This document shows, piece by piece, positions 3-36,630 of a stretch of 64,000 nucleotides of DNA. The notes under the pieces were generated by a model. It did no database searches and was not told the origin of the DNA. It saw only the letters and a list, made by a program, of their open reading frames with translations. A program made the translations under genes and the position numbers. Where the stretch lies: assembly GCF_019059575.1 (NCBI RefSeq), contig NW_024881615.1, forward strand, positions 496,001 to 560,000. The letters are read 5' to 3'. This DNA comes from Amphibalanus amphitrite. Its lineage: Eukaryota > Arthropoda > Thecostraca > Balanomorpha > Balanidae. Position 1 is the stretch's first letter. Every line of letters begins with the position of its first letter.

Positions 3-1841
3 GAGGAGACGCGCCGCCTCCAGCAGGAGGTCGAGGAGGCGCGCAAGAAGCAGCAGGAGGCCGCCGAGGCCCTGCTGGCCGCCAGCACGCCCAACCACCA
101 CCACGTCAACGACCACGACGAGGACGAGAACGATGAGCTGGCCAACGGCGACATCAGCCGCGACCTGGGCAACGAGGACGACGGCAGCTTCGAGGACCCG
201 GTCAACGAGCGGCGCACGGCCACCGAGAAGAACGAGCGGCTCCAGGAGCAGCTGCTGGTCAGTGACGGGGAAAGGGAGGGGAATGGGAGGGGAGAGCGGC
301 TCCAGGAGCAGCTGCTGGTCAGTAACGGGCCGGAGGGGTGGGGGAGCGGGTTAGAGTGGGAGGGAAACAAGGTGGGGAGGAGAGGAGGAGCGCAGTGGGA
401 TGCGAAGGAGCGAGCCCAGAGACCTCAAGCTTGGCGCAAGTCGGGAGGGGGTAGGCGCCTAAAAGGGAAGACCAACACGGGAAGACTGTGATCTTTGAGT
501 CTTGGTTCTGCACTGGCACATAGCTGTACCCGGGCTTAGTAGGCCTCGGCAGTAGAGGCATAGTGCCGCTGTGCGTAGCGCCCCATCCCCGTTCCCTAGT
601 CAGGCTATATGGCCAGCCTCTCTGTCCCAGCCGCCCCCGCAGTCCGATCCCCACGTGTATAGTCTATCGCTCCGCTCCCGTGTTACGGATCTTGTGACAG
701 CCGTCACGGCCCCTAGTCCACTGTGCGTACGTCACATGTGACGGGGGAGCTGTCAGCGCCGGCCGACCGTCAGCCCCTCACCCCTGACAGCCAACTGACT
801 GCCACGCCCGGCCTTGTGCGCGTGTGTGACGCGACAGCGGCGATGACACAATGATTGGGATGATGGGACTGCGGTTTGGGATGGGATCGTGGTTTGGGTC
901 TTTGATTGTGCGAGGGTACCGTGTTGCCTAACGCGGGCCGTAAAACAGGGGTGGATCAGGTGACCAGCGTGCAAAGGGAAAAAGACGTGACATGCGATTC
1001 TCACAACGGCACCTCATCCTTTACTTGTCTTTTATCAAGCAAGTTTTCTAGGTTAGTCGAGCTATAATTTTCAAATCATTGTAGTCGCTTTTCTGACGTC
1101 AGATTCTGTGCCTATGTGCTAAGTGCGATCAACTTTGGGCCCAGTAACAGGCAGTGAGCTCGCCGTTTTCTCTCTCCCCCGTCCGTCACTCGCCGACCTT
1201 CTGTCCCGTGACAGCCGTGACGGCTGCTGCTCCCGTGACGCGCCGTCACCGGTGGTGACCGTCAGGTGCCGGGTGACGTCACGGCCGCCCAGATCCGGGA
1301 GGGACCCCTATCTCCGTGGGGAGACCGGCTGTGTTGATGTTTGTTGTTGACGTTTACTCTGCCTACCGGTCTGAGTCACACTGGTCATAGCTGTGGCTGG
1401 GTATCAGTTTGTCATGGGATGTGTGCAGCTACCTGCCGTTTCCTCATCTGTTATGTAGTTCGTAAATGAAGGTTTACGTTTGCGTGAACAGCGTGACCAT
1501 TTTGCTCCCATTTCTAACTTTGTATGCATGTCATCAAATGTAACTTTCTTCGGTCACATTTCCATCGTTGCGTACTCATTGCTGACAGAAGTCTCTAAAA
1601 TGGACTGATGAAGGATTTGCCCCCCATTCACCCAACCCCTCTGATATTACTGACACTCCCCGTCACCGATCCGCAGGCCCTCAAAGACGAGCTGGCCGAG
1701 ACCCGCGACGACTCCAAGGAGACGCAGATGGACAAGCTGCACAAGGAGAACGTCAAGGAGGGCAGGGACAAGTACAAGACCCTGCGCGAGATCCGGAAGG
1801 GCAACACCAAGCGGCGTGTGGACGCGTTTGAGAACATGTAG
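3..1841 (+). CDS. Moe: Moesin (ERM protein), C-terminal two exons, 5' partial
   Basis: Last 139 residues of an ezrin/radixin/moesin protein, which links cortical F-actin to membrane proteins. Exons: 3-257 (enters from outside the window, phase 0 at its end) and 1677-1841 (stop TAG). The first exon encodes the end of the charged alpha-helical region ([20 protein letters not shown]) and an acidic, His-containing linker. The second encodes the C-terminal actin-binding/FERM-masking tail, with the near-invariant block [18 protein letters not shown] and the end VDAFENM. The Thr in KYKTLR is the conserved regulatory phosphorylation site of the family. Donor at 258 (GTCAGT) and acceptor ending at 1676 keep the frame. 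The FERM domain lies upstream of the window. The donor end of the first exon is duplicated 60 bp downstream (see repeat entry). Identification is secure; the coding start is not in view. Confidence 0.95.
228..330 (+). repeat. Tandem duplication of a Moesin exon end and its splice donor
   Basis: About 30 nt (exon end coding ERLQEQLL plus GTCAGT) at about 234-263 recur at about 294-323, offset by exactly 60 bp. The second copy lies in the intron, carries the same donor, and the 60 bp between the donors is open in the coding frame (20 codons). Homology of the mature tail favours use of the first donor. Confidence 0.85.
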
Positions 1842-2488
1842 ACGGTAGGAGCCGCGGCGCCCGCCGCCGCCAGCGCCTGCCGCCCCGCCCCGCCCCGCCC
1901 CGCCGTGAGACCGGGCGGACTACTTAGCGGCGTCGGCCGCCCCGCGCCGCCCCTGCCGCCGCCGCCGCTGCCATCGTCATCTGGTCAGCGGTGCGCCCGT
2001 ACCGAGCAGTCTTCCGCGGCGCCAGCGGCGGCGGCCGGCACCGAGCCGAGAGCGCGGCGCGGGCGAGAGTGTACAGACAGACGCAGCGAGAGCGAGCGAG
2101 CAAGAGTGAGAGGGAGCGAGCGAGTCCGTGAACGAGTGAGCGAGTGCCGGAGAAGATGCGCGCGCCCGCGATACTTCCGCCCCTTCCGGTCCTGTAGCAC
2201 CCGGCTAAGCGCGCGCGCAGAGCCGCTCTCGGAATTGCCGCTTCGTGCGAGCGGCTCAGGAGAAGCCGCCGAGGCAGGGCGCCCCCGTTTTGAGGATGTC
2301 TTTACCAGCTGAGCGAGCACCGGCCAGGATAGGTCGCTGCGATCGCCCCGGGTCTTCATACGGCCGTCCGAGCCCGCGTGTGTTGTGGATACATGTTACA
2401 GTGAGATGTATTTTCCATTGGAGTTATCTAATCGTTATATAAAAAGTGCCTCCGGTCTCTGTGCCGGGCTTCGTAACGCGGGAATAAA
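1842..2488 (+). other. Probable Moesin 3'UTR with poly(A) signal
   Basis: GC-rich sequence follows the Moesin stop, with simple GAGCGAGC-type stretches around 2080-2150. An AATAAA at 2483-2488 is followed by a GT-rich stretch (about 2500-2545), the usual layout of a polyadenylation site. No convincing coding potential is seen; the small open frames here are GC-driven. Confidence 0.55.
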
Positions 2489-3973
2489 TGCTATTTTGGA
2501 GGTGTTTTGCTGTTCCCTGGTGAGACTGGTGGTGTGTGGAGGGTTAGCGGCGGGGAACCATGGCTGGCTGGTATGTGCGTCACTCTACTGCCCCTGTCAC
2601 CGACTGCTTGTTCAAGCAGATGTGTCAGTCAGCGGCCGCCGCGCCTGGGTCGGGGAGGACGGCCTTCGCTGACCCGTGCGGAGGCGGCGGCTGTCAGTCA
2701 CCTAGTGGTCAGGTGGCCTTCTAAACGCCGGGTAGAGGGCGGGTTGAGGTCGGCGTCACTGTCTTTTGGCGTCATTTGATAGTTGGTACCCACGTGCGGC
2801 CTGTGCCCTCCCCCTGATGACTGCAGGGACATACACATGATACTCCCTGGGAAAGGACACAATTTGCGCGAGGTAACGAATTATTTCATAGGTTACGCGC
2901 CACGCGGCCGCCAGATCTGAGCGGTGGATACAGACACATTCGATGCGGACTGAGGACAGCATTGCGGCGGGGGTTGCAGTAACCCCGAAGGGGTCATGAT
3001 GACTGGGATGACCTTCGAAAGGGGGTGGGGGGTCATCGCTGGCCGTTCAGTGACAGTTGCCATTTGACACTGGCCGGGACCGAGCTCCTGACACTCCAGG
3101 CAGCGGCCCTTCTAAGCGTCAGGTCGCAAAGACAACATAGTTCTGTTCTAATGTGGTATAGCGATGAATCTACGCAACGATACGCACGCCACGCATGTAA
3201 ACTAAACACGATGCCAGCGTTCCCTTCCGCACTACGTCATGATGTGGTGCCCTTTAGTGTCCCTCGGTTGTGAACAAAGTCGCGGTATGTCACAATCGTC
3301 CAATACGTTAGCAGTGTTCAATGTGGAAATATTTTCAGCTTCTTGTCGACGGCAATACGGATAAGGATGAGATTATTTTAATGATAAGGGTTGGCAATGA
3401 CTAATCTGAATTACAAAACAGCAGACAACGGCAGCCAAAGATGCGGTTATACATAATAACTGTTTTGTAAAGTTGTAAAAGGTAAATGGCACATCGATGT
3501 GTTACACCTATGGATCTCCGTTCACAGACACGACCATTGAGATGAAACCCGTCCCCCATACCGTTCTTCGGCCCTCGTCCGACTGGCCATGTCCCATGTC
3601 TGGCCAATTTTTGCCCCCTCTGTGATATGTCCCGTGGCCAGTCTGTTATGATACTGAAGTGACCTTAGGTCACTGAGGTGACCTGATGACACTGGCATGT
3701 CCTCTTTCTAGATGACTGCCCGGCCCAGCCCTGTGCCTCCCTGTGTTATGAAACGCAGACAGGTCTGCCGGTGTAGTCCGGCTGCTTTTCTGTGTAGACA
3801 GGTCTGCTGGCCTCCCTTCTGCCACTCCGAGCTGCAGAGGTCCGGCCACGAGCCGCCGCTACGCACAGCCCGCCGTCGTGTCGGCCTCGGCCGGTCAGCG
3901 GCCGCACGCAGGTGACATTTGCTGCGTGGCGCAGCGGGGGCGGACGTGCGTGGGGCCCACGCACCTGCGGCCC
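2489..3973. other. Intergenic spacer upstream of the first low-complexity protein gene
   Basis: No gene is recognised. The only motif noted is TGACCT-T-AGGTCA at 3660-3672 with a further AGGTGACCT at 3677-3685, paired nuclear-receptor half-sites about 300 bp upstream of the TATA-like box at 3974. Function is unproven. Confidence 0.4.
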
Positions 3974-3982
3974 CATAAAAAG
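3974..3982 (+). promoter_or_regulatory. TATA-like box of the first structural-protein gene
   Basis: CATAAAAAG at 3974-3982 lies 95 nt upstream of the ATG at 4069. That leaves room for a start site near 4005-4015 and a short 5'UTR, as in strongly expressed arthropod cuticle or secretory genes. Confidence 0.6.
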
Positions 3983-4068
3983 CGGCACCGGAACCCCAGA
4001 GTCGCCACAGTCCCGAGTCGTTCCCGGGTCGCAGCCAGCCGCCGCACTCCGTCCTCCCAGCCATCACC

Positions 4069-5775
4069 ATGAAGTTCGTGGTGCTGCTCGCAGCGGCTCT
4101 CAGCGTCGCCTCTGGTAGGTGCAGTTCGATCAGGCTCGGCGCCGTTCTGCTGAAGCTTTATCTATCAGATATTCGTGACCACTTGCATGGTTTGCATCTA
4201 CGACGAGTTAAAACTCAGCTAGGCTTATGTTCTTTGATAGCATAATGACCTAAATCATAAGCCTATCTAACCATAAGCTAGTCGGTGCCCACTCTAAGTT
4301 GAATCAATCTAGCACCTGACAGTATGGAACAATATCTTCAATGTGGTATATATTGTGCAGTGCGTCGTGATGTTCTCCCAGTCCAGTCTCTCACAGTTTT
4401 ATGATCGACATTGTGCTTTGCCGCAGCGGTGCCTACTGGATTCGTTCGCCCGAACCCGGTGCGGACCACTACCACGACCACTACGACGACCACCACGACG
4501 CCGGCTCAACCCGAAGGCCTTGCCACTGAGACGAAGGCGCTGGCCGGCGGCAAGCTGAAGACGGTCGGCAACGCACTGGCGCAGGTGGCCGGCGGCTCCA
4601 ACACCGTGGAGCGCCAGGAGTCGCAAGAGAGCGCCGCCAACGCGCGCGTCCAGATCGACGCGCAGCGGGCCGCCATCGGCCAGGCGAAGGCTGCCTCCAA
4701 GGGCCGCTCGGACGTGCTCAGCCAGGCTAACAGCGAGCAGGCCAGCAGTGACACGCGGGCGGCGGCGCGCGGCGTCAGCGTCGGCGAGGCGCGCACCCAG
4801 GCGGACGCCAACGGCGCGGCGGCCACCCGCGGCCGCGGCACCAAGACCGACGGCAACAGCGGCATCAGCACGGCCACTGAGAGCGACGGCGCCAGCAGCG
4901 GCCTCAGCCAGGCGCTGGGCACCGCCTCCCGGCAGACGGTGGGCGGCGTGTCCGAGTCCCGCGCCGACACCATCTCCGGCACCAAGGGCCAGTCGCGCGG
5001 CAGCGCCGGCGTGGCGGGCGCCGGCCGCGCGCGCAGCGCCGCCGTCCAGGCCAACACCACGGCCCTCTCCGGCAGTCAGACCAAGGTGGACGTCATCGGC
5101 GACGGCAGGGCCACGGCCGCAGAGGCCGGCGGCGCGCTCGGCCAGTCGGGCGGCTCGGCCTCCAGGCGCGCCTCGCGCACCGAGGCGGCCAACAAGGGTG
5201 AGGTGGAGACCCGCGGCGACGGCGCCGGCGCCGTCGGCGAGTCCAGCTCCAAGGCCACCGCCACCGAGTCTGGCACCAGCGCGGCCGAGTCCTCTGCCAA
5301 CAACCGGCTGGCGGCCACACGCACCGGCCGCGCCGAGACCAGCATCTTCACCGAGGGCGGGTCCACGCTCGGACTCGACCAGTTCTCCGGCGACGTGGTC
5401 GGCGCCGTCAAGTCGCTCACCTCTGGCAGTCAGAGCTCGCTGGGCAGCGCCAACAGCAAGGTGAACGCGGCCAGCTCGGCGCAGAACGCGCTCGGCGGCG
5501 GCGCCGCACTCGGTGACAGCACGTTCCGCGCCCAGACCTCGGGCACCGGCGCCGTCTCCGGTACTCTGGAGACGCGCGCCCAGAACCGGCTCAAGGCCGA
5601 CGCCCAGCCGGCCCAGCTCAGCCTAGTGGAGCGCATCAGACAGCAGCAGCAGCAGAAGGAGGCCGAACAGGGCAAGGGCTCCGTGCTGCCCTCTGCCGGC
5701 AAGGGCAAGGGGCCGCGGCCGACCCAGCCGCCGCCGCCGCCCACCCTGCCCAGCCCGCCCAGAGGCAAACACTAA
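4069..5775 (+). CDS. Secreted Ser/Gly/Ala/Thr-rich low-complexity protein, paralogue 1
   Basis: Two exons, 4069-4114 (46 nt, phase 1) and 4427-5775, encode 464 aa. Exon 1 plus the first codon of exon 2 make a signal peptide (MKFVVLLAAALSVASA), so the start is well supported. The mature protein begins VPTGFVRPNPVR, then a run of 12 Thr (possible O-glycosylation), then about 370 residues of hydrophilic Gly/Ser/Ala/Thr sequence of the type SGxxTxxDxxG, with almost no aromatic residues and no Cys. The C-terminus has QQQQQ and a basic Pro-rich tail. It shares blocks with the next gene, such as LSGSQTKVDVIGDG (nt 5068-5109) and a Phe-containing segment near nt 5341-5530. The same exon structure and orientation point to tandem duplication. 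I do not recognise a named family. Composition resembles silk-like or cement-like structural proteins (inference). Confidence 0.85.
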
Positions 5776-6198: not shown

Positions 6199-6257
6199 AG
6201 GCTCGGAGGGGGTCGCGTGCCGCCAGTGCCCCCGGCCGTCGTCACCGAACGTCCGCC

Positions 6258-8362
6258 ATGCACTGCTGGATCTTGGCAGTCGCCTGCCTCGGCGCCGCCG
6301 CAGGTAAATAGGCTGCTAGCTCCTCCAGACATCTTCCCCGCTGATGGTTGCAGAAGTCGAGTGAAAAATAAAAAGATATTTCATAAAAACAATGATAAGC
6401 TTCTAAACTCCGGTATCTGAAAACGAGATCCATTTAGGAGATACACTAGAGTGAGGAGTCAGAGAATACCACCTACCTAATTTACGGAATGTCTTGAGCT
6501 GGACAGCGTAACCATCATAGAGACCAGATCAAAGGAAACTAGACTAATTGCCCCAGTATTGCTACACTTCTAGCATATTTCACAGAGATATAATACGAAT
6601 AGTACCGAGGGCGAAAACCATGTTTCCAGAATCCCGTATGTGTGTGGAGAATGCGGTACAATAAACGCGATGCCTCCTTACAGCGGCGCCGTGTATCAAC
6701 TGCGGGGTGCGCGGAGTGGGCCCGCCTGCCGGCGCTGTGGTGGTTGGTCCGCCGCCGCCCGAACCCGTCTTAGTTGAGAAGCACAGCCTCGGCACGCGCA
6801 CCAAGGCAGACGTCTCCGGCACCATCATCAGCACCGGCAACGCCAAGGCGGTGGTGTCCGGCGGCTCGCGCGCCACCCAGCTGCTGCCCGACCAGCGGGG
6901 CGGCGCCGCCGCGCGCGTCAAACTCTACACGCAGCGCAACGGGCTCGGCTCGGGCAGCGCCGCCTCGGTCGGCCGCTCAGACGTGGACGCCGGCCTCAAC
7001 GCGTCCAGCAGCCAGGGCGACGCCATCACCGAGACACGCAGCACCGGCGAGGCCACCACCGAAGCCGACGCCACGGGCAAGGGCGAGACGCTCGGCGAGG
7101 GCTCGCGCACGGACGCCAGCGGCGGCTCCAGCTCCGCCACCATCAGCGACGGCTCGTCGGCCGGCGCGGCGCAGACGGTCGGCACCGCCGGACAGGCGCC
7201 GGGCATCGGCACCGACGCCGGCTCCGGCGCCGCCTCCCACGTCGAGTCGAGCGGCTCGGGCGGCTCGCGAGCGGCGGGTCGCGGCCGCGGCGCCGCCTTC
7301 GGCAGCGACACCACCTCGCTGTCCGGCAGCCAGACCCGGTCCGACGTCATCGGCGACGGCCAGGCGCGCTCCGTGGAGACGGGCGGCGCCGCCGGACAGA
7401 AGGGCGACGGCATCAGCCAAACCCAGGCCACCTCCAAGGGCACGGTGCACACACTCGGCAACGGCGCCAGCGGTGACGGCGAGACGTCGGCCAAGGGCAC
7501 GGCCGGCACCAACAGCACCACCTCCTCGGACTCCACCGCCAGCAACCGACTCAAGGCCACCCGCGGCGGCGTCGCCGAGTCGGACGTCTTCACCACGGGC
7601 CTGTCCGAGCTCGGCATGGACTCCTTCACCAAGGGCCTGGCGGTGAAGACCAAGTCGGTGACGTCGGGCGAACAGACCACCGCCGGCAGCGCCAGGGCCA
7701 AGAGTAACGGCGCCAGCGCGGTGGGCAGCACACTGCTGGGCGCCGGCGCCGCCATCACCGACACCACCTTCCGCGGCGAGAGCGTCACCGCCGGCAGCAT
7801 CAAGGGCGCGCTGCAGTCGTCCGGCGTGGCAGGCGTGGCCGACGGCCAGCCGGTGGTACAGGCCGCAGAGCCGGCCGCCGACGCCGGCAACACGGTGGTC
7901 GTGGTGGATAAGCCGGCGACGTCCGAGACGCCCGTCGTGGTCGCGCAGCCCGCCCCGGCCCCGGAACCCTATGTGCCCCCCGTCCCCGCTCCGGAGCCAT
8001 ATGTGCCTCGGCCCAGACCTGAGCCATACACACCTCCCTACAGCCACAAGCAGAGTACTGGGCCATACATACCACCCTACGCCCACAAGCAGAGTCCTGA
8101 ACCCTATACACAACCCTATGTGCCTAAGCAGAGTCCTGAGCCATACGTGCCACCCTATGTGCCTAAGCAGAGTCCTGAGCCCTACACACCACCTTATGTG
8201 CCTAAGCAGAGTCCTGAGCCCTACATACCACCCTATGTGCCTAAGCACGATCCTGAGTCATACACACCACCCTATCCGCCTCGGCGACGCACCTACAGAA
8301 ATGAGTCCTACAAGCACCACAAGCGGACCGAATACGCAGCGACGGACCCGAACGGATTTTAG
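6258..8362 (+). CDS. Secreted Ser/Gly/Ala/Thr-rich protein with Pro/Tyr repeat tail, paralogue 2
   Basis: Two exons, 6258-6303 (46 nt, phase 1) and 6684-8362, encode 574 aa. The signal peptide is MHCWILAVACLGAAA followed by APCINCGVRG, so the mature N-terminus carries two Cys. A body of about 360 residues is paralogous to the preceding gene: shared LSGSQTRSDVIGDG (nt 7318-7359), ASNRLKATRGGVAES against ANNRLAATRTGRAET, and DTTFRGES against DSTFRAQT. Unlike its neighbour, it ends in a Pro/Tyr-rich domain (nt about 7950-8290) with 13-residue repeats of the type KQSPEPYxPPYVP, then a basic Arg/Lys/Tyr tail. The identical first-exon length and phase support duplication of one ancestral gene. Likely an extracellular structural, cuticle or adhesive protein. 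Tyr in PEPY motifs could be cross-linked, which is inference. Confidence 0.85.
8025..8280 (+). repeat. 39-bp coding repeats (PEPYxPPY)
   Basis: About six head-to-tail copies of a 39-bp unit encode SPEPYxPPYVPKQ variants. The central copies are most alike and the outer copies degenerate, the usual sign of unequal crossing-over. Confidence 0.85.
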
Positions 8363-13238: not shown

Positions 13239-13240
13239 TA

Positions 13241-14523
13241 CCGGGTGTTGCAGCTAAATTGGGACAAAGTTCGTAACCTAATCACAATTTTGTTATTTGG
13301 AGGATATGGCTGAAAATTTGACATGATACTATTTCAACAATGCTCTTTCACGTGCTAATATTTTTGATGCACGAAAACCGATAACAGTCATGGAGGAACA
13401 GCGTAGATGTACAGTTGCTGAATTAGTTCGCGCTGGACAAAGCGCGAAAGAGATCGTTATCGCAACAGGATACCCGAAGTCTACGGTATATCGCACTGTC
13501 GCTACTATGGACGGTGGAGGAGATGTCAGTAGACGTCCCCATGCGCCGCGAAGTGACCGCAAACGGAATCCTCGGTTTCTCGCGGGCTTGAAAAGGTCTA
13601 TTGAGGCCAAACCAGGTGTCTCAATGCGTAAGCTAGCGCGAGACCGAAGGGTGAGCAAAAGCACCATTAGCAGGGCTGTCAAGGAGAACCTCGGGATGAG
13701 GTCGTATAGTAGGAAACGGCAGAACCTTCTGACGGAGCGTCTAAAAGCGTTACGGAAGGAGAGGGTCCCGATGGTTCTGAACCAGCTCAAGAACCATGGA
13801 GGAGACGTGAGAGTCTTTGTGGACGAAAAGAAGTTTGTGGTAGACGAAGTTGCCAACCGCCGGAACTCAAGAGTCATCGCCTCGAACCCCGGTGATGTTC
13901 CACCAGTGATGATAAGCAAAAATCCAGCCTCTGTGATGGTGTTCGGAGCCGTCGCGAGCGACGGTCGCGTCATGCCCCCTCACTTCATACCTGCTGGAGA
14001 AAGAATCGGCGCAGAGGAGTATCTGGCCATCTTAGAAGAAGTGCTTTTGCCCTGGATGGCGAAGTACTACGACCTGAAGAAAGTCACACTTGTACAGGAC
14101 TCGGCTCCAGCTCATGCTTCCCGGAGGGTGCAGGATTTCCTTAGTCGGAAGATCCCTCTGTATGTCCCAAAGGATACGTGGCCTCCAAACTCACCCGACC
14201 TAAATCCGTGCGACTTTTGGATGTGGAGCGCGATTGAGGAGAGGTCCAACGCACGTGCCCATGACAGCATCTCGAGCCTCAAGAAGTCCATCAAGAAGGC
14301 AGCCAGCAGCATCGATCCTATGGAGGCTCAGCGCGCGTGCGGCGCGTTCCGACGCCGCCTGGAGATGGTGAAGGAGGCTCATGGTGGCCACATTGAGTGA
14401 GAGGGTAGAGAACATGTGCGTCAATACACGTTCAAAGTTTGAAAGCTCTGTCTCTTCATTCTACTGAGTTATGCCACTTTAAGTGTAAGCGGGAAAAATT
14501 CCCAATTTAGCTGCAACACCCTG
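13241..14523 (+). mobile_element. Tc1/mariner-superfamily transposon, apparently intact
   Basis: A 1,283-bp element bounded by TA dinucleotides (13239-13240 and 14524-14525). Its 24-bp terminal inverted repeats, 13241-13264 and 14500-14523, differ at only the second outermost base; the left one starts CCGGGTGTTGCAGC. It contains one full transposase gene and no obvious lesion. Confidence 0.93.
13390..14400 (+). CDS. Tc1/mariner transposase, DD37D type
   Basis: Uninterrupted 336-aa transposase that cuts and reinserts the surrounding element. The N-terminal part (about residues 5-110) holds two helix-turn-helix-like modules (TVAELVRAGQSAKEIVIATG and VSMRKLARDRRVSKSTISRA) that would bind the inverted repeats. 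The catalytic triad is visible: Asp in VFVDEKKFVVD, Asp in LVQDSAPAHAS, and Asp in SPDLNPCDFWMW. Thirty-seven residues separate the second and third Asp, so it is DD37D rather than the DD34E of Tc1 or DD34D of classical mariner. That resembles the maT-like group, a family assignment made from spacing only. No stop or frameshift is seen, so the enzyme may be functional. Start taken at the ATG at 13390, which opens the frame. Confidence 0.93.
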   Translation: MEEQRRCTVAELVRAGQSAKEIVIATGYPKSTVYRTVATMDGGGDVSRRPHAPRSDRKRNPRFLAGLKRSIEAKPGVSMRKLARDRRVSKSTISRAVKENLGMRSYSRKRQNLLTERLKALRKERVPMVLNQLKNHGGDVRVFVDEKKFVVDEVANRRNSRVIASNPGDVPPVMISKNPASVMVFGAVASDGRVMPPHFIPAGERIGAEEYLAILEEVLLPWMAKYYDLKKVTLVQDSAPAHASRRVQDFLSRKIPLYVPKDTWPPNSPDLNPCDFWMWSAIEERSNARAHDSISSLKKSIKKAASSIDPMEAQRACGAFRRRLEMVKEAHGGHIE

Positions 14524-17478: not shown

Positions 17479-20400
17479 ATGCATTTTACAAATGGATTGT
17501 TTTTTCTATTTGGTTTCGTTTTCTTCATATGCCAAGGTAGGTATTCAGCCAAAACAGTTAAACTACTTTCAGCATTTGGCTCTGATGTTACTATTGTCAT
17601 AGTCAAGTCAGCTATATTTAATCTGTGCATTTAAGATTTCACTAGTGTTACGCATTTTTATGGGATATTTTACCCTGCACAGTTCTTTTCATGCTTGAGT
17701 GCAGGTCAAGTGATTTCATTCCATAACTCACTTGCTCCTTGCTAGTGTATCTTTTGAGGCCAAAGTTTTTAGAATAGAAGTATGATGATCAACCACACTA
17801 TTTAACAGCATAACTGTGTTTTCAGGCTCACTCATCAATCGACTGAAGTACCATGAGGTGATGCATGCAAGTGAGCTAAGCCACACAATTGTGAAGCGAG
17901 GCATCAACAGCAGCCCTCATCCTTTCAACAAAATTAAAGAGCTAACATTCAAAACACTGGGCAGGTACATATGCTGGAATTGGATGTTTTTAGATCTGTT
18001 TTGGGTAAGGCAATTTACTCATTAACTTTAGGATTTGATTGCATGAGAAGAAAATGTGTGATGTTTGTAATGTAGCTTTGTAATTTTGTATGTAATGTAA
18101 TGTTTTTTATCTCCTAAATGCCTGGTGTTATTTTATTTTTAATACTGTAACTGTTTGTCACAGGGATTTCAAGCTTATGCTTTCACCAAGAAAGTATCTG
18201 CTGCACAGCCAGTTCAAGGCATATGAAGTGGACAAGGATGGAAAGGAAAAACTCCATCATATCGGTAAGTTTCCATTAATTAGCCCTTAAACATAGGTAC
18301 TTTTGTCTTTGGTTTCTGGTGTAAACTCGTTGGATCAATTTCTTATCATAGTTTCTGACCTCTGTGGATATCAAGTTGACCATACCAACCCTGCATAACT
18401 TTGTGAAAATATGTCAATATCAAAATGTTGAATGATTATCCTGTCCTGTTGTGACCTGTTATAATTACAAACAAATTACCTGTATGATGTTCATGCCTTG
18501 TGACCGTCACAGACCCGGAGCACCACGACCTGTACGAGGGCCGTGTGTTCGGCGAGATAGAGTCGGACGTCAGCGCTCTTATCGAGGACGGCGTGATGAC
18601 GGCTACCGTACGGACGAAGGAGGATACGTACCACATTGAGGTGAAGACTGCCGACGTCTTATAGAGCTATGGCCGATAGATTTATGTCTGGTCTGGTCTG
18701 ATTGGTCTGACCTAGACCCTACTCTAGTGGGCAGTCAAACAGGGGTGGTATGAGTGGTTAGTCATTCAGTGGCATCTGAGTCAACACTTGTCACATGCCT
18801 GAGTGTATGGCTTGCTGATGAACGATTCGGAGTGACATCTTATAGTGTCATTTCTTTGTAACGCTCGCGGCTTCCACGTCCGCATTATTTCCCGTGATGA
18901 TGCCCTTACCGCTGCCGTGGCCGTCCTGCGTCATTTTCAGCCGGCCTGGCGCCACATCGACGACCCGCTGCGCACTCGGATGATCACCTACCGCAGCTCG
19001 GACGTACTGGATGGCCAGCCGGGCCTGCCGCTGCCCTCGCTCGGCTCCCACTGCGCCTACGTGCGCGAGGAGGGGAACGCCACCGGTGAGCGGCCGGGAG
19101 GGTAGTGCTCAGAAAAAGAAATACAGCTCTTCGGAGGGACAATGCATGGAAGGATAGTTCGAGCGCGATAGTTCGGGACAAGATACTCCGTTGCATTACA
19201 GTTTACGAAGGACGGTGCCTGGCGGAATTCCTAGCGGCTGCTTCCAGCGATTAGTTGCTCGGAAGTTTTTTTCAGCCGATCGTTTGACGACCGTCTGGCG
19301 CTAGCACCATACAGGCAAACATGAAGTGTAGTTTCTTGTGTTGATATGTTTGCTCACGTTTTGTTTATATTTATAGCTGATGGTGCTTTTTGTCGCGATC
19401 TTAGTATCATTGCCTATGTTATTATAATGCAACTATGCTCGCGGGTCAGCGTTCAGCTTCGGTCACAAATTCCGTCTTGATAGTTAATCTACACGGGCAT
19501 TGAACAATATCTAATGGATTTTCTGACTGTCCCCAGGCCCGGAGTGGGGCGAGGAGGGCGGTCCAGGTCCTCACGTGCGAGCTAAGCGCCAGACCACAGA
19601 GGCGTTCACGTTCAACATAATGAAGACGCGCTGTCCGCTGCTACTGGTGGCCGACTATCGTTTCTACAAGGACATGGGCAGCAGCAACACTAAGACCACC
19701 ATCAACTACCTGGTACGATCGGATAGGATGGGCGCTCAATGGTCACGATGTCCCCCTCTCTTCCTAAACCCAACAATTGATTAATCGACTGTCATATGGT
19801 CTGCACATGGGCGTCCCAACGCTGCCCATGGGCACACTGATGACTTTCCCATTCATTTACTCGCCATTATTCTTGATATTACAACCTGTTGAGCTTTCTG
19901 CTGCCACGTTTACAATAGAGGTGGCAAAATGTGGACCCGAGGACCCGGTCCAAAGAACCAGTCTGGACCCATATGGGTCCAGACCGGTTCCTGGAAATTT
20001 TCTGACGGGTCCAACCGGGTCCTACCATAAACTATACATCTTGCACACCACACATTATTGCAAAATAAGAAGTGAATGAAGTGAATGTTTCTTTGCACAC
20101 AGTAGATCATGAGTATTCCCAGTGGGAAATTGGCTGTTTTACATGATGCAACTAATGATACCTACAAGTAGTTTGTATTGATTGACTTTTGGGGAACGGG
20201 TCCAACTGGTTCCGATTCCAACTAAGACCGGGTCCGACTGGTTCCAGAAATGTCCAACCGGGTCTGGTTCGAGTCTGGTTCCCAAAATTTTCATCTTTTG
20301 CCACCTCTAGTTTACAACGTTCGCTCCTGACCCATCCGGTGTCACTGCCTACAGATCAGCTTGATCGACCGTGTAGACAAGATTTACCGCGACACGGTGT

Positions 20401-23400
20401 GGGCGGCGGGCGACCGCGACCGAGGCGTGGGGGAGCGCCACCTGGGAGCCATGGGCTTCGTCATCAAGAAGATCGTGGTGCACAGCGAGCACACGCCGGT
20501 GGCGCGGGGCCAGGAGCACTACAACATGGACACGGGCAGCTGGGACGTGCGCCACCTGCTCGAGGTACGGGGGATGCTGCTGCTGCTGCTGCTGCTGCTG
20601 GGGCGGGGGCTGGACACGGGCAGCTGGGACGTGCGCCACCTGCTCGAGGTACGGGGGATGCTGCTGGTGCTGCTGCTGCTGGGGTGGGGGCTGGGCACGG
20701 GCAGCTGGGACGTGCGCCACCTGCTCGAGGTACGGGGGACGCTGCTGGGTTGGGGGCTGGACACGGGCAGCTGGGACGTGCGCCACCTGCTCGAGGTACG
20801 GGGATGCTGCTGCTGCTGCTGCTGCTGGGGTGGGGGTTGGACACGGGCAGCTGGGACGTGCGCCACCTGCTCGAGGTACGGGGGATGCTGCTGGTGCTGC
20901 TGCTGCTGGGGTGGGGGTTGGACACGGGCAGCTGGGACGTGCGCCACCTGCTCGAGGTACGGGGGATGCTGCTGGTGCTGCTGCTGCTGCTGCTGGGGTG
21001 GGGGTTGGACACGGGCAGCTGGGACGTACGACAGTACGACACCTGCTCGAGGTACGTAGGAGGGTGACTGCTGGTGGACGTCACAGAAAGTGGGATGGGG
21101 GGATACAATTTTACTTCATTGACGGGCAGTGTGACATGGGCGACCAGAACTATGCAGTTTGGTAACATGTGAAAAACGTAGCGTTTGTTTCTTTTACTTT
21201 TGTTTTAGACTGCTTGGTAATGTTACCGACTTTTGGCCGATGCCAGCTGACTGAGCCAGACTGATCTACTAGCAGACGAATAGACGAAGAGAAGAGACGA
21301 CAGACGACCGGCTCACTGACTGCTGAATTCTGACCGATCTACCGACTGGCCGAGCAGAGGACCATAACAGGTCACCTTCTACTGGGAATCTTCAACGTGC
21401 GGTCTGATTCAGTGGAGACGCGGAGAGCCCGTGGTAGGTACCGGGCCGAGACTAAACTGACGGAGAGACTAAGAGGGGCTCATTACCCTCAGCGGACAGT
21501 CGGCGAGTGACTCATGCCCATTTCGAGTTAATGAGTCATGTATAGGCTGTTTTGTTTTTGTTCTAAAAGTCACTTTTTTGTGCAGTCTTATATCACAGCG
21601 GTGTAGATTTTAGTTTTTGATTTTCTTTGGTTGAGTGATCCGAAACTTGCCACCATGGACAGTCATTGATATTGATTTGCAGCTGCTTTTAGTGTGACCT
21701 CCCCACCATGTATTTCGTGCCGTGCCGACGACCCGCCCGCCCGCGACAGGTGTTCAGCCGCGACTACACGCACAAGGACTTTTGTCTGGCGCACCTGTTC
21801 ACCGATATTCGGTTCGACGGCGGCATCCTGGGGCTGGCCTACGTGGGCTCTCCGCGACGCAACTCGGTCGGGGGCATCTGCACGCCCGGTACGTGCCGAT
21901 TGGAGCGGAGGTAGAGCAGTGGGAATTGTCATGCGTGGGTTCAGATATGTAGTAACTGCTCGCTGTTTGCGTCCAGTTTGAGGCCTGGCAGATGTTGATT
22001 CAAGTTTCTGGCGACACTAGCCAGCGGCGGGGTAAGGATTGATATTTGACGCTGCATATTATTAATGGCTACACTTATGGCCCGGACTCGGTCGTATTCC
22101 CTGCTGAGTATCTAAATCACTTATTAGTTATTACGAAGATCACTCATTTCCTTTGCACATTGCACCATCAATTCCGGACTTGTCTATTGTTTCCTCTTCT
22201 ATCCAGCCCTGCTGATAATCTTTCCTCTGATACCCTGCAGAGTATTTCAAGAACGGATTCACTCTGTACCTGAATTCGGGCTTGAGCTCCTCACGCAATC
22301 ACTACGGCCAGCGGGTCATCACACGGTACGTGAGGAAATCACACATTGTGTGTTCGTAGTAGTTATGTACGCGAGCGAAACGCACATTACTTATGCTGCT
22401 ACGCTTGTTAGCCTCTCGTATACCTAACCCTGTAAAATGTATATCGGGTTGTGTTGTGTGCTCTCGTGTACTACCGTCAATACCAGGGTTGGCCTTTTTG
22501 CCGGCAAAAACTAGTTTATGCCATTTGCCGGTTTAAACCGGCTTTAACCGGCAAAAAGTGGCAAAAACTGGCAAAAACTAAAAACCATCACAATGATATG
22601 CCTAGACATGGATTTGAACATGAAACATTTTAAGGAGAATTCGGTGAAAGCTTTATGCTTTCAAACAGAAGTGACATTGACCGTTGAAGTGTTCTATAAC
22701 TCAAAAACACTTTCATGGGCTTTCCATAAGGAACCAGTAAGACGCCTTTTGGGGTTGACAAATGAGCCAGTGCAAGAGTGAGTCCTGCACAATCAGAAGT
22801 GCGAAGGGGTATCTGCCACTGATATGCGCACGGCACCCTACCGTGGCAGCTTTGCCCCACTCTCCCCTACATGGAAATGCATTCTGTGGGGGATGTCTAC
22901 CGACATGCATAGACATTTTAAGCAGGGATAAGTAATGAGGCAAACTTCAGAATGTTTGGTGCATCTCTATAACATCCAGAAATGCATTTGTACATTTCCG
23001 ATCCATTCCTAACTAGAAAAGTTGTGGTTTGGGCCACCTGAGTTTTATCCAGTTTTTGCCAGTTTTTGCCACCGGGGTTTCTGCCAGCTGGTTTAAACCG
23101 GTTAAAACCACTGGCAAAAACCAGTTTTTGCCACCCCTTGCCAACCCTGGTCAATACCGTGTCACTTGCGGTGTACTTCGCCTTGCGACGTATCGCCGAC
23201 CCTTATGACCCCTTCTGCCTCTCTGCCCCGCTGTCTGCAGCGAGGCCGACCTGGTGACGGCCCACGAGTTCGGTCACAACTGGGGCAGCGAGCACGATCC
23301 CGACATGGCCGAGTGCTCGCCGAGCGCCAGCAAGGGCGGCTCCTACCTCATGTACACCTACTCCGTCTCCGGATACGACCTCAACAACAAGGTGAGTGGG

Positions 23401-25408
23401 AGCCGGCCGCGAAATGACCCGGCTGAGAGGAAAGGCCCTTGTGGGCAGCCTAGTGAGTAGTAGTAGATACACGGGTTTTACAATGGAAGTTGTTTGAGAA
23501 TATTTTTAAGTATCTTGATTTTAACGCAGAGTACCAATGGCGCCACCTCCTAAAAACTATCGTTGACCCATTGCAGAATCTGCTCATTTTGCACAGTCTG
23601 CAGCTCACACGGCAGTCCCCAGATCCGACACTATCCGTACGTCCCAGTTAACTGACCATGCACCGTGCCCCGACTCTGCGCAGCGTTTCTCTCCGTGCTC
23701 CCTGCGCTCCATCAACCTGGTGCTGAAGGCCAAGTCGTCGCGCTGTTTCACCGAGCCGGAGGAGTCGTTCTGCGGAAACCTGCGTGTCGAGGGTGACGAG
23801 GAGTGTGACGCCGGTCTGGTCGGCTCGGAGGACGAGGACTCGTGCTGCGACAAAAACTGCAAGCTGCGCCGGAACACGGGCGCCGTGTGCAGCGACAAGA
23901 ACTCTCCGTGCTGCAGCAACTGTCAGTACCTGCAGCTGGGAGCCAAGTGCCGAGAGGCCAGTCTGGCTACCTGTGAGAAGGAGGCCACCTGCAACGGTGA
24001 GAGGGGGGTAGAGGGTGGTTGTGGGGAAGTAGGAAGGGGATACGGTAGTTTCATTGGTGTGTGGGTGGTGGGAACGGCGGTGAGGGAAGCACTGAGGACG
24101 ATAGATGACCGTTTGGATGACTCATTTCGTTTTGAGAAGGTGACAGGGACTCCTACTTCTTGGTACCTAACGCTGGTTGGCCCACAGTTCCTCTCACTTT
24201 GTCTGCCAGGCGCGCGCGCTGGCTGCCTGGCCTCTGCCTCGATGGATCTATCTAACTCCTGTCTCCTTCTCTGCCAGGCGCCCGGGCCGACTGTCCGGCC
24301 TCTGCTCCAATGGTGGACGGCACAGAGTGTCAGGAGCACGGCGGTCGCTGCCGCGCCGGCAAGTGCGTGTCGTTCTGCGAGCTGAACGGCCTACACAGCT
24401 GTATGTGCGACGTGGAGAAGTACGCGTGCAACCTGTGCTGCCGCAAGTCGCTCAACGACACGTGCACGGCCCAGGAGCCGCTGCGCACCCTCTCCGGAGG
24501 AACGCCCTGCATGCACGGACTGTGCAACAACATGGTCAGTTGATTGCCGGCGAGGAGGAGAGGAGACTGTTAGTAGGGTCAAGGGTGATAAGCATAGCAA
24601 TCAGGATGGTCTGAGGCGAGCTGTCGGTGTGCGATCGTAGAGTCGACGAGGTATGTTTGTCGACTCTACGTCGACTCTACACACCATCAATATCACACCT
24701 TGGTGGTGTGATATTGACAAATATTATGATCGGCACTGATGTGGTACAATGTCGTTTGGCAGCTGTTGTGATAATGTGTGACATTGTCAACTGTCAGGAT
24801 GGTCGTGCTGAGGGAAGTTTGGCCGACCGACGCTCCATTTTCCCTGTTCCGCTCTGACCCGTGCCTCTGACCCGGTGCACCACAGGGCGTCTGTGAGAAG
24901 ACCGTACAGGACGTAGTGGAACGCTTCTGGGACATCATAGAGGACATCAACATCAACAAGGTGCGTGGCAGATGCCGGGCTGGTCTGCCGGTCAGTGGGG
25001 TAGGGGGACTACGAATATCTGTTGTTGCGTCATATGGATCAGCTGTCGTTTTCGTACATGGCACCACAGTCGGTATTGTGATTATTTACTGAATGCCTTC
25101 AGCAACAGTTTACTTCAGGATCTACTACTGACCCAATATTTAATCCCCTCTCGTTCTCACAGGTGTTGCGGTTCCTGCGTGACAACATCGTGGGCACTGT
25201 GCTAGTGATCAGCATCATCATCTGGGTGCCGGCCAGCTGCGTGTTCAGCTACGTGGACGCCAAGCGGCGCCGCCAGGAGGAGGAGGAGCTGGCCTGGCAG
25301 CGGCGCGACCAGCTGATACGGCCCGGCGAGCGGCGCGTCGTCTACACTCGCCGCCGGCTGCCCGACCGCGATCGACCGGCAGAGTATGGCGCCTCCGCCA
25401 GGATGTAG
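17479..25408 (+). CDS. ADAM17: ADAM17/TACE-like transmembrane metalloprotease (14 exons, complete)
   Basis: Sheddase that releases ectodomains of membrane proteins at the cell surface. Exons: 17479-17536, 17826-17964, 18164-18264, 18513-18640, 18941-19085, 19537-19712, 20355-20564, 21750-21888, 22241-22325, 23241-23391, 23684-23996, 24278-24534, 24886-24960, 25163-25408. All have GT-AG borders with matching phases and give 740 aa. Order: signal peptide ([20 protein letters not shown]), prodomain, furin site RAKR at 205-208, catalytic domain with zinc motif [12 protein letters not shown] at 402-413 and Met-turn [11 protein letters not shown], Cys-rich disintegrin domain (EGDEECDAG), then a membrane-proximal Cys module. 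The juxtamembrane helix ([12 protein letters not shown]), a TM segment at about 669-688 and a short basic tail follow. The tail is shorter than in vertebrate ADAM17. Two exon edges carry duplicated splice sites, and two introns hold hAT MITEs. Exon borders are inferred from sequence alone. Confidence 0.93.
19916..20309. mobile_element. hAT-type MITE in ADAM17 intron 6
   Basis: A 394-bp element with inverted ends TAGAGGTGGCAAAA and TTTTGCCACCTCTA. It is flanked by a perfect 8-bp target duplication, GTTTACAA (19908-19915 and 20310-20317). Eight-bp duplications are diagnostic of hAT elements. It has no coding capacity; the interior repeats GGGTCC-type motifs. Confidence 0.88.
20528..21057 (+). 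repeat. Minisatellite built from an ADAM17 exon end plus splice donor (7 copies)
   Basis: The last ~37 nt of exon 7 (coding [13 protein letters not shown]) and its donor GTACGG are repeated head to tail. Candidate donors follow 20564 (authentic by homology), 20648, 20729, 20795, 20875, 20956 and 21051. Spacers are GC-rich with CTG runs. The first three offsets (84, 165 and 231 bp) are multiples of three and the frame stays open; later copies shift frame. Confidence 0.9.
22484..23149. mobile_element. hAT-type MITE in ADAM17 intron 9
   Basis: A 666-bp element starting CAGGGTTGGC and ending GCCAACCCTG. It is flanked by the perfect 8-bp target duplication GTCAATAC (22476-22483 and 23150-23157). 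Subterminal regions are built from GGCAAAAACTGG-type repeats in inverted orientation. No transposase is present, so it is non-autonomous. Confidence 0.9.
24199..24310 (+). repeat. Duplicated splice acceptor at the ADAM17 disintegrin-distal exon
   Basis: The segment CTCTGCCAG plus exon start at 24269-24310 has a diverged copy 68 bp upstream (acceptor ending 24209). Both are followed by a GCGC-rich stretch and GGCCTCTGC. Use of the upstream AG would shift the frame. Confidence 0.65.
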
Positions 25409-33700: not shown

Positions 33701-35082
33701 TCTTCAGCTCTACACAGTTCATGACATTGCACACAAACACAGTCGGGCTTTGTGTTTTTGTTGACCTAGCTTTTGGTTTGCCCCGCTACCGCCCCAGCCC
33801 TAACTTCCTTTCTCCATCCTCCCCCTCCCCGTCGCCTGGTGTTTGCTGTGCTTTCAACACGGCCATCTTCACCAGCAGCCGTTCTCTTGACGCGACCTAA
33901 TGCCTTACTTCCTGTCCTCTGCCTTCGACTCTGCCTCCCATAGGTCTCCTATCTTACCGATCCCTTCCTCTACCATTCCTTCTTGTTCCCTATATCCTGA
34001 GCACTGAGCAGTACCCGTCCCCCTAACTCTGTAACGTTTCCCACCAGCCTCTATAGCCGACCCTGACCCCGTCCCCTCCCTCCCCTCCTCCCTCCCCCTC
34101 CCCGTCCAGTGGCCGTCCTTCCGCCGTCGCCGACGCCGCGCTCGACTGGTCAGCCTTTGTGTGCGCCGGACGGCCGGGACGGCGCCGGGCCCGGACCCAA
34201 ACTGCCATTGTGTGGAGGGCAGCCCGCTCGACTGCAGCCGCCACGGCCTTAGAGGCCCACGCCTCGTGTTATATGAACTCCACTGGGCGTGTGTGGGGCG
34301 TCTTCATGGCGTGGAGGGGAGGCTACATTAGAGAAATGGGGAAGCTTGTGGGGCGAATGCGTTCGCATTAGCATGTGCTCGTTCAGTAATGATTCAGGGA
34401 AGATTAATGCAACGTCTAACATGAGCACATTAACTTCCGTGCGTGAGAGATCTGGGTCACATGAATATTTTCAATTTCCTTAGATCGGCTTAGTATACCG
34501 CTGCTTAATTGCCGTCTTTCGTGTTATCTGTGCGTGCCGCCCTGTCGGATTTGCATGTTTCATGTGATTTTATGGAGCACTGCACTGCGTTTGAATGTAT
34601 GCCATTCCACCGGCATGTCTCCATTGGGATATACCGTCAGCCCGGTATAATCCCTCCCTATAGCTCCGCCGACCGCCACCCTAGTTAATCCCTCCTCTCC
34701 TCCCCTTCCCCAGAAGATGAGATCGGTCGAGTCTCCTCTCCCTCCCCTTCCCCCTTCAGAAAAAGCTGTCCCTGCTGGGCTTGGCCGCGTGTGACCCTCC
34801 ACCTTCTCTCCTACTCTCTCAGGAGAAGCTGACCCGTCTGGGTCGACCTCTCCTAACCCTCCCCTCTCCTCCTCCACAGGAGAAGCTGTCCCGCCTGGGC
34901 TCGGCCGCGCCGTCCGCCGCCGGTTCAGAGGCGACCCCCGGGGCGCCGGAGCGACCTCCGAGCGCTGCTGGTTCCGAGCCCCTCTCCAGCCGCACCCAGT
35001 CTCCTGTGCCGCGGCCACCCATCGAGGAAGTCATCAGAGAGCGGGAGGAGCTGCGAGCGCGACTCCAGCAGTTCATCGGTAC

Positions 35083-35151
<69 letters not shown>

Positions 35152-36630
35152 AGGGAGGGAGGAAGGGAGAGAGAGAGAGAGAGGGGGGAGGGAGGAGCTG
35201 CGAGCGCGACTCCAGCAGCTCATCGGTATGGGGAGAGAGGGATGGGGTGGGAGGTAGGAGAGGGAGAGAGAGAGAGAGAGGCCTGAGTAGCGAGTCCGGC
35301 TGCAGCAGTTTATCGGTAGGGGGAGGGAAAGAGGGCGGGCGTCTACTGACTATGGGGTGTTTATCTTTGCTGACCATTTGCTGGAGCTGGCAGATAGTTT
35401 CGCTGCGAGTGGATGAATCCTGAAATTATTCTGCTCAAATGGTCCCTCATCATGATGGTCATTTTTCACCCCGATGGAATCATGGTCGTATTGATAACAC
35501 ATGGGCTTTGGGATTGGAACATTGCCCCAACAAATGAGAAGCGATGGTTAGTCTATGAGCTGCTCTCTACGTGATGGACCACTCCCATTATCTCGTGCTG
35601 TGTTCAATTTTTGAAAATGCAAAATTTAGTAGCTCTTTTGCTGGTACTTATCAATAGTTACGACTTTCATTTGTAATCCATGAGTGAGTATCCGTCGTGC
35701 AAGTGACGCTTTGCGTTTTCCTCAATAATTACTTTTGTTCGTGTTCACCAGCGTGATTTACTTATGTTGGTATATGTTAGTCGGTGCCCCTAAACCCTTT
35801 GTCGCTGTTTGATCGCTGCACGGCCGGTGGTCCGCTTTCTTTGGCTCATGTGAGGTCGGTCCAGTGAGACCTGCATTCCCGCAACCACGCGCACTTGTCC
35901 TCTCTTGATAGATTGTCCGTCCCGCTAAATGTTGCGACCGTCCTGAAGCCTATTCTTTGTCTCGGTGCTTTGGCGCTGCCCTTCCCTCACTCGTCGGCAG
36001 TTCTGTGACACTCTCCTGTCTTCAGTTCCGAACTTTCTCCTTGCATTGGCGGTCTATGGATCTCCTGTACCCAGCTCTGTTCTGTAACGTTCCCCTTTTC
36101 CACATTTGTATGACCCGTCCTCTCGTGTGTACAGGCGGCGGCGCCATGGACAGTATTTGACAGTAGACACTTACCGTAGACAGTAGACACTTACCGTAGA
36201 CAGTAGACACTTACCGTAGACAGAAGACACTTCTATAACCCGTCCTCTCGTGTGCACAGGCGGCGGCGCCGTAGACAGTATTAGACAGTAGACAGTAGAC
36301 ACTTACCGTAGACAGAAGACACTTCTATAACCCGTCCTCTCGTGTGCACAGGCGGCGGCGCCGTAGACAGTATTAGACAGTAGACAGTAGACACTTACCG
36401 TAGACAGAAGACACTTATCTAACCGGTCCTCTCATGTGCACAGGCGGCGGCGCCGTGGACCCAGCTGAACACGAGAAGCTGCGCTCAGCCCTGGCGCAGC
36501 TGGAGAAGCGATTCTGCGAGGTCATGAACCAGGTGGCCGCCCTGCGGGAGGAGCGGCAGGGCCTGGAGCACCTCTGTGAACAGCTGCAGGGCGAGACGGA
36601 CACCATCGGTGAGAGCCGGGAGCGGAGAGA

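What the first reader, a model, noticed from the sequence alone, without database searches (positions are those of the whole stretch)
228..36450. Recurrent tandem duplication of exon edges with their splice sites in three unrelated genes
At six exon borders (Moesin donor 258; ADAM17 donor 20565 and acceptor 24277; GOLGA2 acceptor 34879, donor 35079 and acceptor 36443), exon-edge sequence plus its splice signal is copied 1-6 times into the adjacent intron. The duplicated unit is centred on the splice junction each time and always extends on the intron side, so the exon copy can still be spliced out. Seeing this in three genes within 64 kb suggests a genome-wide process, not a local accident. 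Tandem duplication of AGGT-containing DNA is a known proposed route of intron gain. Arrays of decoy sites at existing junctions would be a reservoir for alternative splicing or intron growth. The mechanism is inference.
Basis: partly seen in the sequence, partly recalled or inferred. Interest (0 to 1): 0.88.

Follow-up and report, generated by a model that had tools for sequence, protein, structure and literature searches.

The report
Exon-edge "mirage" repeats in a barnacle
In this barnacle genome the ends of exons, with their splice signals, are copied in tandem into the neighbouring introns at roughly 6-9% of the exon edges sampled in kinase and myosin genes; lancelets are known to have the same thing under the name "mirage" minisatellites, and here it is seen and counted in an arthropod.

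Summary
In detail: all six exon borders carry one to six junction-spanning copies on the intron side. An allelic haplotig (C604) carries the same six arrays, with other copy numbers at three, and a database protein shows a third ADAM17 allele, so assembly error is unlikely. To test "genome-wide", exon edges of protein kinases and myosins were scanned. Copies sit at 15 of 162 edges, or 9 of 155 without edges placed by hand. Interior control positions in introns without an array at that edge gave 7 of 777 and 5 of 770. Against all intron positions the excess is weaker (14/162 v 30/869; strict 9/155 v 20/824, p 0.035). Exons called in random stretches gave 0 of 50 edges. The copies look like passengers: 7 of 22 first spacings are multiples of three, allelic spacing shifts phase at GOLGA2, and splice dinucleotides are kept only slightly better than neighbours. 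[quoted passage not shown] It is not intron gain by AGGT duplication, since the unit straddles an existing junction. A new member of a known kind in another phylum; why junctions are hit is open.

The parts
234..329 (+). Moesin donor (junction 257/258) and its single tandem copy (294-329)
   Evidence: 35 of 36 identical, spacing 60; identical in the allele C604
1677..1841 (+). Moesin last exon, spliced from donor 258
   Evidence: open frame joins; P0002 on the same contig and the other six proteins read have ...LQEQLLALKD... with no insert
20355..20564 (+). ADAM17 exon whose 3' edge seeds the array
   Evidence: [12 protein letters not shown] also in Pollicipes (P0121), so the exon is taken as the source of the copies
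20527..21067 (+). ADAM17 donor array: real edge plus 6 copies, steps 66-95 nt, (CTG)n and G-rich spacers
   Evidence: C604 has the real edge plus 2 copies; P0130 shows a third allele
24189..24313 (+). ADAM17 acceptor: upstream copy (24189-24245) and real edge (junction 24277/24278)
   Evidence: 44 of 57 identical, spacing 68; spacing 73 in C604
34757..34909 (+). GOLGA2 acceptor: two upstream copies (from 34757 and 34820) and real edge (junction 34879/34880)
   Evidence: C604 also has two copies, at -53 and -116
35043..35322 (+). GOLGA2 donor: real edge (junction 35078/35079) and two copies, with (GA)n and GGGA runs between
   Evidence: 95% and 74% identical over 43 nt; C604 has three copies
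36102..36468 (+). GOLGA2 acceptor: three upstream copies and real edge (junction 36443/36444), unit 92 and 125 nt
   Evidence: C604 has one copy

Best explanation
These are mirage-type minisatellites. A short DNA segment that straddles an existing exon-intron junction is tandemly duplicated, and the array then gains and loses units like any VNTR. The change is silent because the splice site nearest the intact exon goes on being used, so all extra copies stay inside the intron. SHOWN: the arrays; their presence in two haplotigs with different copy numbers at three of six; recurrence in unrelated genes; concentration on exon edges in two sampled families; none in the exon interiors scanned. INFERRED: that the exon is the source (its sequence is shared with Pollicipes); that splicing uses the outer site (gene models and open frames, no RNA); that units arise by replication slippage or template switching favoured by GC-rich edges; that selection removes duplications wholly inside exons; that the copies have no function of their own.
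For: Contig C604, taken as allelic, carries all six arrays. Total units, window v C604: ADAM17 donor 7 v 3, GOLGA2 donor 3 v 4, GOLGA2 acceptor 36444 4 v 2; the other three equal. The ADAM17 exon 23684-23996 matches two contigs of G000, while P0130 [Amphibalanus amphitrite], on a contig of another length, shows a third array. Kinase sample 10 of 97 edges, myosin 5 of 65. Pooled with spacing up to 150 nt: 14 of 162 edges v 7 of 777 interior positions in introns with no array at that edge, Fisher p 5e-7. Without the seven hand-placed edges 9 of 155 v 5 of 770, p 8e-5; without edges fetched or added after a repeat was seen 12 of 158 v 7 of 765, p 7e-6. Profile: 0 of 152 at 60 and at 45 nt inside the exon, peak 13 of 153 at the junction, 2 of 122 at 180 nt into the intron, but 3 of 80 at 210 and 3 of 55 at 240. 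Exon interiors 0 of 496. In the MRCK-type kinase gene, haplotig C611 has eight extra acceptor copies and C485 none. Flagged edges are GC-richer (intron side p 0.007 donors, 0.0003 acceptors).
Against: The interior control of 7/777 leaves out introns that carry an edge array. Against all intron positions the contrast is 14/162 v 30/869 (p 0.005) and, without hand-placed edges, 9/155 v 20/824 (p 0.035). At GC of 0.55 or more it vanishes (11/102 v 18/182); against array-free introns it is 1/141. In 11 random 10-kb stretches 3.6% of positions are flagged and 25 called exons gave 0 of 50 edges. GC alone does not explain the place, so the cause of junction targeting is unproved. No RNA was seen.
Confidence: 0.78

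Rival explanations
1. Ordinary minisatellites scattered over a repeat-rich genome. Some overlap exon edges by chance and were noticed because exons were being read. There is no junction specificity.
For: 3.6% of positions in 11 random 10-kb stretches are flagged. No excess over all intron positions at GC of 0.55 or more (11/102 v 18/182), and only p 0.035 in the strict set (9/155 v 20/824). 0 of 50 edges of exons called in random stretches.
Against: Two gene families give 15 of 162 edges (9 of 155 strict). In the intron stretches scanned beside those edges few hits stand free of an exon edge: of 7 interior hits, 3 belong to acceptor arrays of the next exon, 3 to L092, 1 to a 20-nt AT-rich repeat in L050. 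The profile peaks at the junction.
Confidence: 0.15
2. The copies are kept by selection as working alternative or back-up splice sites, or as decoys that bind splicing factors.
For: Array-averaged GT retention 0.87 v 0.695 for random adjacent base pairs (P 0.055), AG 0.85 v 0.72 (P 0.18). First copies of the three window donor arrays are at multiples of three (60, 84, 147), ADAM17 also in C604 (66), in open frame in the window. Gene model P0130 reads through ADAM17 copies as coding.
Against: First spacings are multiples of three in 6 of 11 donors and 1 of 11 acceptors. Spacing changes phase between alleles at GOLGA2 (147 v 179, 57 v 53). All three copies at one L091 acceptor have AG to AA. An array of eight copies is absent from the other MRCK haplotig.
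Confidence: 0.08
3. Intron gain or growth by tandem duplication of exonic AGGT proto-splice sites.
For: Units carry donor or acceptor motifs; tandem genomic duplication is reviewed as a genuine intron-gain route (PMC3443670 passages), and mirages were proposed as an intermediate (PMC3087553 section 16).
Against: Units straddle junctions that already exist and the copies lie inside the existing intron; no new intron was seen at the six sites.
Confidence: 0.04
4. Assembly artefact from merging two very different haplotypes.
For: The assembly is partly diploid (C604) and one contig pair is 100% identical over 1,046 bases (L041 v L069).
Against: Short diverged units with first spacings of 29-192 nt, several with many copies, present in both haplotigs and, as a different array, in a database protein from another contig.
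Confidence: 0.02

Closest known systems
Mirages (mirage minisatellites) of lancelets, Branchiostoma: globins BflGb6 and BflGb9, Adh3, TnC, PGBD5 and others (PMC3087553 section 16 read; PMC3902484 passage; the Adh3 paper PMC117041 is not held)
   Same: Tandem duplications that span an intron-exon boundary, at donors and acceptors; units of tens to about 160 bp; copy number differs between haplotypes (6 v 3 units in BflGb6); many but not all copies keep AG/GT; regular splicing reported as undisturbed.
   Different: Cephalochordate v barnacle; here a frequency is estimated (15 of 162 sampled edges, 9 of 155 strict) with interior controls; no RT-PCR or somatic-instability data here.
Intron gain by tandem genomic duplication of AGGT (review PMC3443670, passages)
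   Same: Tandem duplication that copies splice signals.
   Different: There the duplicated segment is exonic and a new intron results; here the unit includes an existing junction and the existing intron only lengthens.
Internal tandem repeats at exon-intron boundaries of human segmentally duplicated genes (PMC2812944 passages)
   Same: Variable repeats at exon-intron boundaries that can change splicing.
   Different: Found in recent human paralogs by comparing paralogs and RNAs; the passages seen do not describe copies seeded by the exon edge in ordinary single-copy genes.
Introns from tandem arrays in human, Zhuo et al. 2007 PNAS (seen only as a reference entry; content recalled)
   Same: Tandem arrays around splice sites linked to alternative splicing.
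   Different: Recalled as a claim about origin of alternatively spliced introns; not compared here.

Membership tests
Mirage minisatellites (as described in lancelets) | Tandem repeat unit spans an exon-intron boundary | tested here: met
   six borders in the window and 15 of 162 sampled edges, 9 of 155 strict
Mirage minisatellites (as described in lancelets) | Both 5' and 3' boundaries can be affected | tested here: met
   kinase 6 donors and 4 acceptors; myosin 1 donor and 4 acceptors
Mirage minisatellites (as described in lancelets) | Copy number differs between haplotypes | tested here: met
   3 of the 6 window arrays differ between C118 and C604; MRCK acceptor array 8 extra copies v none
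Mirage minisatellites (as described in lancelets) | Many, not all, copies keep AG/GT | tested here: met
   GT kept e.g. in 18 of 19, 11 of 13, 6 of 7 and 0 of 1 copies; AG lost in all 3 copies of one array
Mirage minisatellites (as described in lancelets) | Regular splicing is not disturbed (RT-PCR) | not testable with these tools
   only gene models seen: P0002 uses the outer donor; P0130 reads through the array
Mirage minisatellites (as described in lancelets) | Somatic length instability | not testable with these tools
   no reads
Intron gain by tandem genomic duplication | Duplicated exonic AGGT supplies both splice sites of a new intron | tested here: not met
   at the six window sites units straddle existing junctions and copies lie inside the existing intron
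Selected alternative splice-site arrays | Spacing preserves the reading frame | tested here: not met
   7 of 22 first spacings are multiples of three; phase differs between alleles at GOLGA2
Selected alternative splice-site arrays | Splice dinucleotides kept better than neighbouring bases | tested here: inconclusive
   donors P 0.055, acceptors P 0.18

The most novel reading that the evidence does not exclude
A mutational process acts specifically on exon-intron junctions in some animals. It makes short tandem duplications across splice sites far more often than in the rest of the intron, in both a cephalochordate and an arthropod. Some 6-9% of exon edges then carry segregating arrays of potential splice sites at any time, so much intron length and splice-site variation would come from the exons themselves.
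Probability: 0.37. Interest if true: 0.82.

Novelty: new member of a known kind. Interest (0 to 1): 0.6.

Why it matters
In the papers held, mirages appear only in lancelets: a search for mirages, minisatellite, intron and tandem together returned two papers, both on lancelets. Searches joining barnacle, arthropod or crustacean terms with minisatellite or tandem-duplication terms listed no such report among the rows shown (8 of 442 papers; 10 of 47). Finding them in a barnacle at some 6-9% of sampled exon edges turns an anecdote into a process that can be measured. It makes direct tests possible: mutation rate at junctions, use of decoy splice sites in allelic arrays with different copy numbers, and whether intron length grows from exon edges. 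It also warns annotators, since the public ADAM17-like model P0130 starts inside such an array.

Tried and rejected
A first exon caller trained by iteration over-fragmented genes and was dropped. It was replaced by one with fixed splice consensus (recalled) and codon usage from known exons. The G-quadruplex idea for instability: motif in 3/11 v 10/93 donors and 2/11 v 4/98 acceptors, not significant. Clustering of hits within genes: 5 same-gene pairs v 2.0 expected, P 0.055. GC content alone: flagged edges are GC-richer, but GC-rich interiors of array-free introns are almost never flagged (1 of 141). A whole-genome scan was not possible. Two ADAM17 donors without arrays (18656, 24991) were probably mis-set; one search left out 18656 and kept 24991. 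Neither they nor the likely true sites score as copies.

Rows left out or added before counting. Kinases: no edges were taken from L035, L045, L046 and L047 (no reliable exon). Alleles or near-duplicates of a counted locus (L028, L054, L056, L059, L069, L071) were not counted again. Edges whose exon end was uncertain were skipped by hand. L028/L070, a strong array at a likely stop codon, was excluded. L064 donor 1474 (score 26.5, low complexity) and L034 (score 13) count as unflagged. The C485 donor and the MRCK next-exon acceptor array are not among the 97 edges. Seven edges were placed by hand because the caller missed the exon or mis-set its edge: the C182 acceptor, C485 acceptor, L051 second acceptor, three in L062 and one in L079; six of the seven are hits. 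L069-L075 and L093 were fetched because of hits already seen, and the C182 and L051 acceptors were counted after their repeat was seen. One search gives the counts without these groups. Myosin: called edges had to lie within 50 nt of the Pfam match.

Fisher tests treat pseudo-edges 30 nt apart as independent, so the P values are rough. The spacing list for the multiple-of-three count was typed by hand and includes the sub-threshold L034.
Full report
WHAT WAS CLAIMED AND WHAT IS THERE. The window is G000:C118:496001-560000 of an 807.55-Mb, 2,644-contig genome. Exon models for ADAM17 and GOLGA2 stay in a single open frame when the outermost sites are used (two ADAM17 donors away from the arrays were probably mis-set there). 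In a scan of 41 exon edges of Moesin, ADAM17 and GOLGA2 the six score 19 to 71.5, one further edge (36609) scores 17 because of a GA microsatellite, and the other 34 score 11 or less.

THE ARRAYS SEGREGATE. C604 aligns along the locus at mostly 90-99.8% identity (a few blocks 79-89%), and window 38393-43819, which holds a retroelement, is missing from it; I take it as the other allele. It carries the same six arrays. Total units, window v C604: Moesin donor 2 v 2 (stretch identical), ADAM17 donor 7 v 3, ADAM17 acceptor 2 v 2, GOLGA2 acceptor 34880 3 v 3, GOLGA2 donor 3 v 4, GOLGA2 acceptor 36444 4 v 2. A DNA search with one ADAM17 exon finds only those two contigs of G000. P0130 lies on a contig of 378,590 bases, unlike C118 (1,053,755) or C604 (421,374), and its first 47 residues are array translation with other spacer residues than either haplotig (compared by eye), so a third allele exists. 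Exon sequence at the Moesin and ADAM17 donors is shared with Pollicipes (P0004, P0121), so copying went from exon to intron (inference).

GENOME-WIDE TEST. Exon places were taken from Pfam searches of the genome (PF00069; PF00063). Kinase loci L023-L068 and myosin loci L076-L092 were chosen from those lists before being read; L069-L075 were fetched later because of hits. An edge was flagged if an ungapped segment with at least 8 bases on each side of the junction matched a copy on the intron side within 450 nt with score 15 or more (match +1, mismatch -1.5) and low-complexity index under 0.7. Kinases: 10 of 97 edges (6 donors, 4 acceptors). Myosins: 5 of 65 (1 donor, 4 acceptors). At thresholds 13, 17, 20 and 25 the pooled counts are 16, 14, 12 and 8 of 162. 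Interior controls at 60-240 nt into the same introns, copies within 150 nt: 7 of 777 in introns with no array at that edge and 30 of 869 in all introns, against 14 of 162 edges (Fisher p 5e-7 and 0.005). Of the seven, three lie in arrays of the next exon's acceptor (C182, L062), three are in L092 and one is an AT-rich repeat in L050. Seven edges were placed by hand where the caller failed, and six of them are hits. Without them the counts are 9 of 155 edges, 5 of 770 and 20 of 824 (p 8e-5 and 0.035). Without edges fetched or added after a repeat was seen they are 12 of 158 (13 at 450 nt), 7 of 765 and 24 of 843 (p 7e-6 and 0.008). Resampled intron sequence gives 0 of 462 and exon interiors 0 of 496. 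The flagged fraction is 0 of 152 at 60 and at 45 nt inside the exon, 6 of 153 at 30, 13 of 153 at the junction, 9 of 154 at 40 nt into the intron, 2 of 122 at 180 nt, then 3 of 80 at 210 and 3 of 55 at 240.

RESULTS AGAINST. In 11 random 10-kb stretches 3.6% of positions are flagged (score 16 or more), with one stretch (L013) giving about half of them. 25 exons called there gave 0 of 50 edges, the highest score being 13.5; some of those exons are doubtful. At GC of 0.55 or more, edges (11/102) do not exceed all intron positions (18/182); against array-free introns it is 1/141. The size of the excess thus depends on how positions inside arrays are counted.

STRIKING CASES. In an MRCK-type kinase gene (name from residues and recall; C611 and C485, 84.6% identical over 732 aligned bases, allelic or a recent duplicate), the donor edge is followed by 19 copies at steps of about 29-42 nt in C611 and 13 copies in C485. 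The next exon's acceptor is preceded by eight copies of 80-85 nt in C611 and none in C485, so much of that intron is built from its own two exon edges. L091 (myosin) has copies at three of its four scanned edges. L062 has an acceptor array and a donor copy on one exon.

DO THE COPIES DO ANYTHING? First spacings are multiples of three in 6 of 11 donors and 1 of 11 acceptors, 7 of 22 in all, which is chance. GT is kept in a mean 0.87 of copies per array v 0.695 for random adjacent pairs (P 0.055) and AG in 0.85 v 0.72 (P 0.18); three copies of one acceptor in L091 read AA. Allelic spacing changes phase at GOLGA2 (donor 147 v 179, acceptor 57 v 53) but not at the ADAM17 donor (84 v 66). The moesin model on the window's own contig uses the outer donor (P0002). 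P0130 reads through ADAM17 copies, but it is a gene model with no RNA behind it that I could see. I conclude passengers, with weak hints of retained splice motifs.

MECHANISM. Most likely (inference): short tandem duplications by slippage or template switching, more frequent where exon end and intron start are GC-rich (exon and intron GC higher at flagged donors, p 0.009 and 0.007; at acceptors p 0.096 and 0.0003). Duplications wholly inside exons are removed by selection, and those across a junction survive because the outer splice site is unchanged. Copy number then drifts. This does not explain why GC-rich interiors of array-free introns are spared, so a junction-specific factor stays possible.

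WHAT IS KNOWN. [quoted passage not shown] Adh3 and other lancelet genes have them too, and the authors propose them as an intermediate in intron gain (PMC3087553, section 16 and passages). A lancelet PGBD5 paper repeats the point for Adh, TnC and PGBD5 (PMC3902484, passage). Those two were the only papers in the library holding mirages, minisatellite, intron and tandem together. The Daphnia tandem-repeat survey has no occurrence of splice, exon-intron or intron-exon in its main text (PMC3152781, term search). Balanus improvisus has a mean allelic diversity of 5.5% over 66 genes, and the published A. amphitrite draft was 609 Mb from two pooled individuals (PMC8270832 passages), which fits the haplotigs seen here. 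The finding is a new member of the mirage kind in another phylum, with a frequency estimate.

Noticed in passing
window 38400-43830: LTR-type retroelement by eye (minus-strand 1,588-aa pol-like ORF 38713-43479, repeated ends) inside the last GOLGA2 intron; missing from haplotig C604, so the insertion looks polymorphic.
   Followed up: partly
window 13327-14400: Open reading frame of 357 aa that looks like a Tc1/mariner-type transposase (recognised by eye); C604 lacks window 13240-14522.
   Followed up: no
window 4405-5775 and 6665-8362: Two neighbouring long ORFs rich in Gly, Ala, Ser and Thr with similar repeat-like protein sequence; the second ends in a 39-bp coding repeat (PPYVPKQSPEPYT). 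Possibly secreted structural proteins.
   Followed up: no
C867/C1438 (L041, L069): Two contigs 100% identical over 1,046 bases while four other pairs compared differ by 5-9%: the assembly may hold some exact duplicates as well as divergent haplotigs.
   Followed up: no
P0130: Public ADAM17-like gene model of A. amphitrite (473 aa) starts inside the exon-edge array and so lacks its N-terminal part: such arrays can mislead annotation.
   Followed up: partly
L028:1053-1172 and L070:1056-1272: Array of about 45-nt units at the probable stop codon and 3' UTR of a kinase gene; units also contain a donor-like CCTGTGAGA. Not counted as an exon edge.
   Followed up: partly
window 36625-36703: Long GA microsatellite just inside the intron after donor 36609, much like the GA tract after donor 35079.
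   Followed up: no
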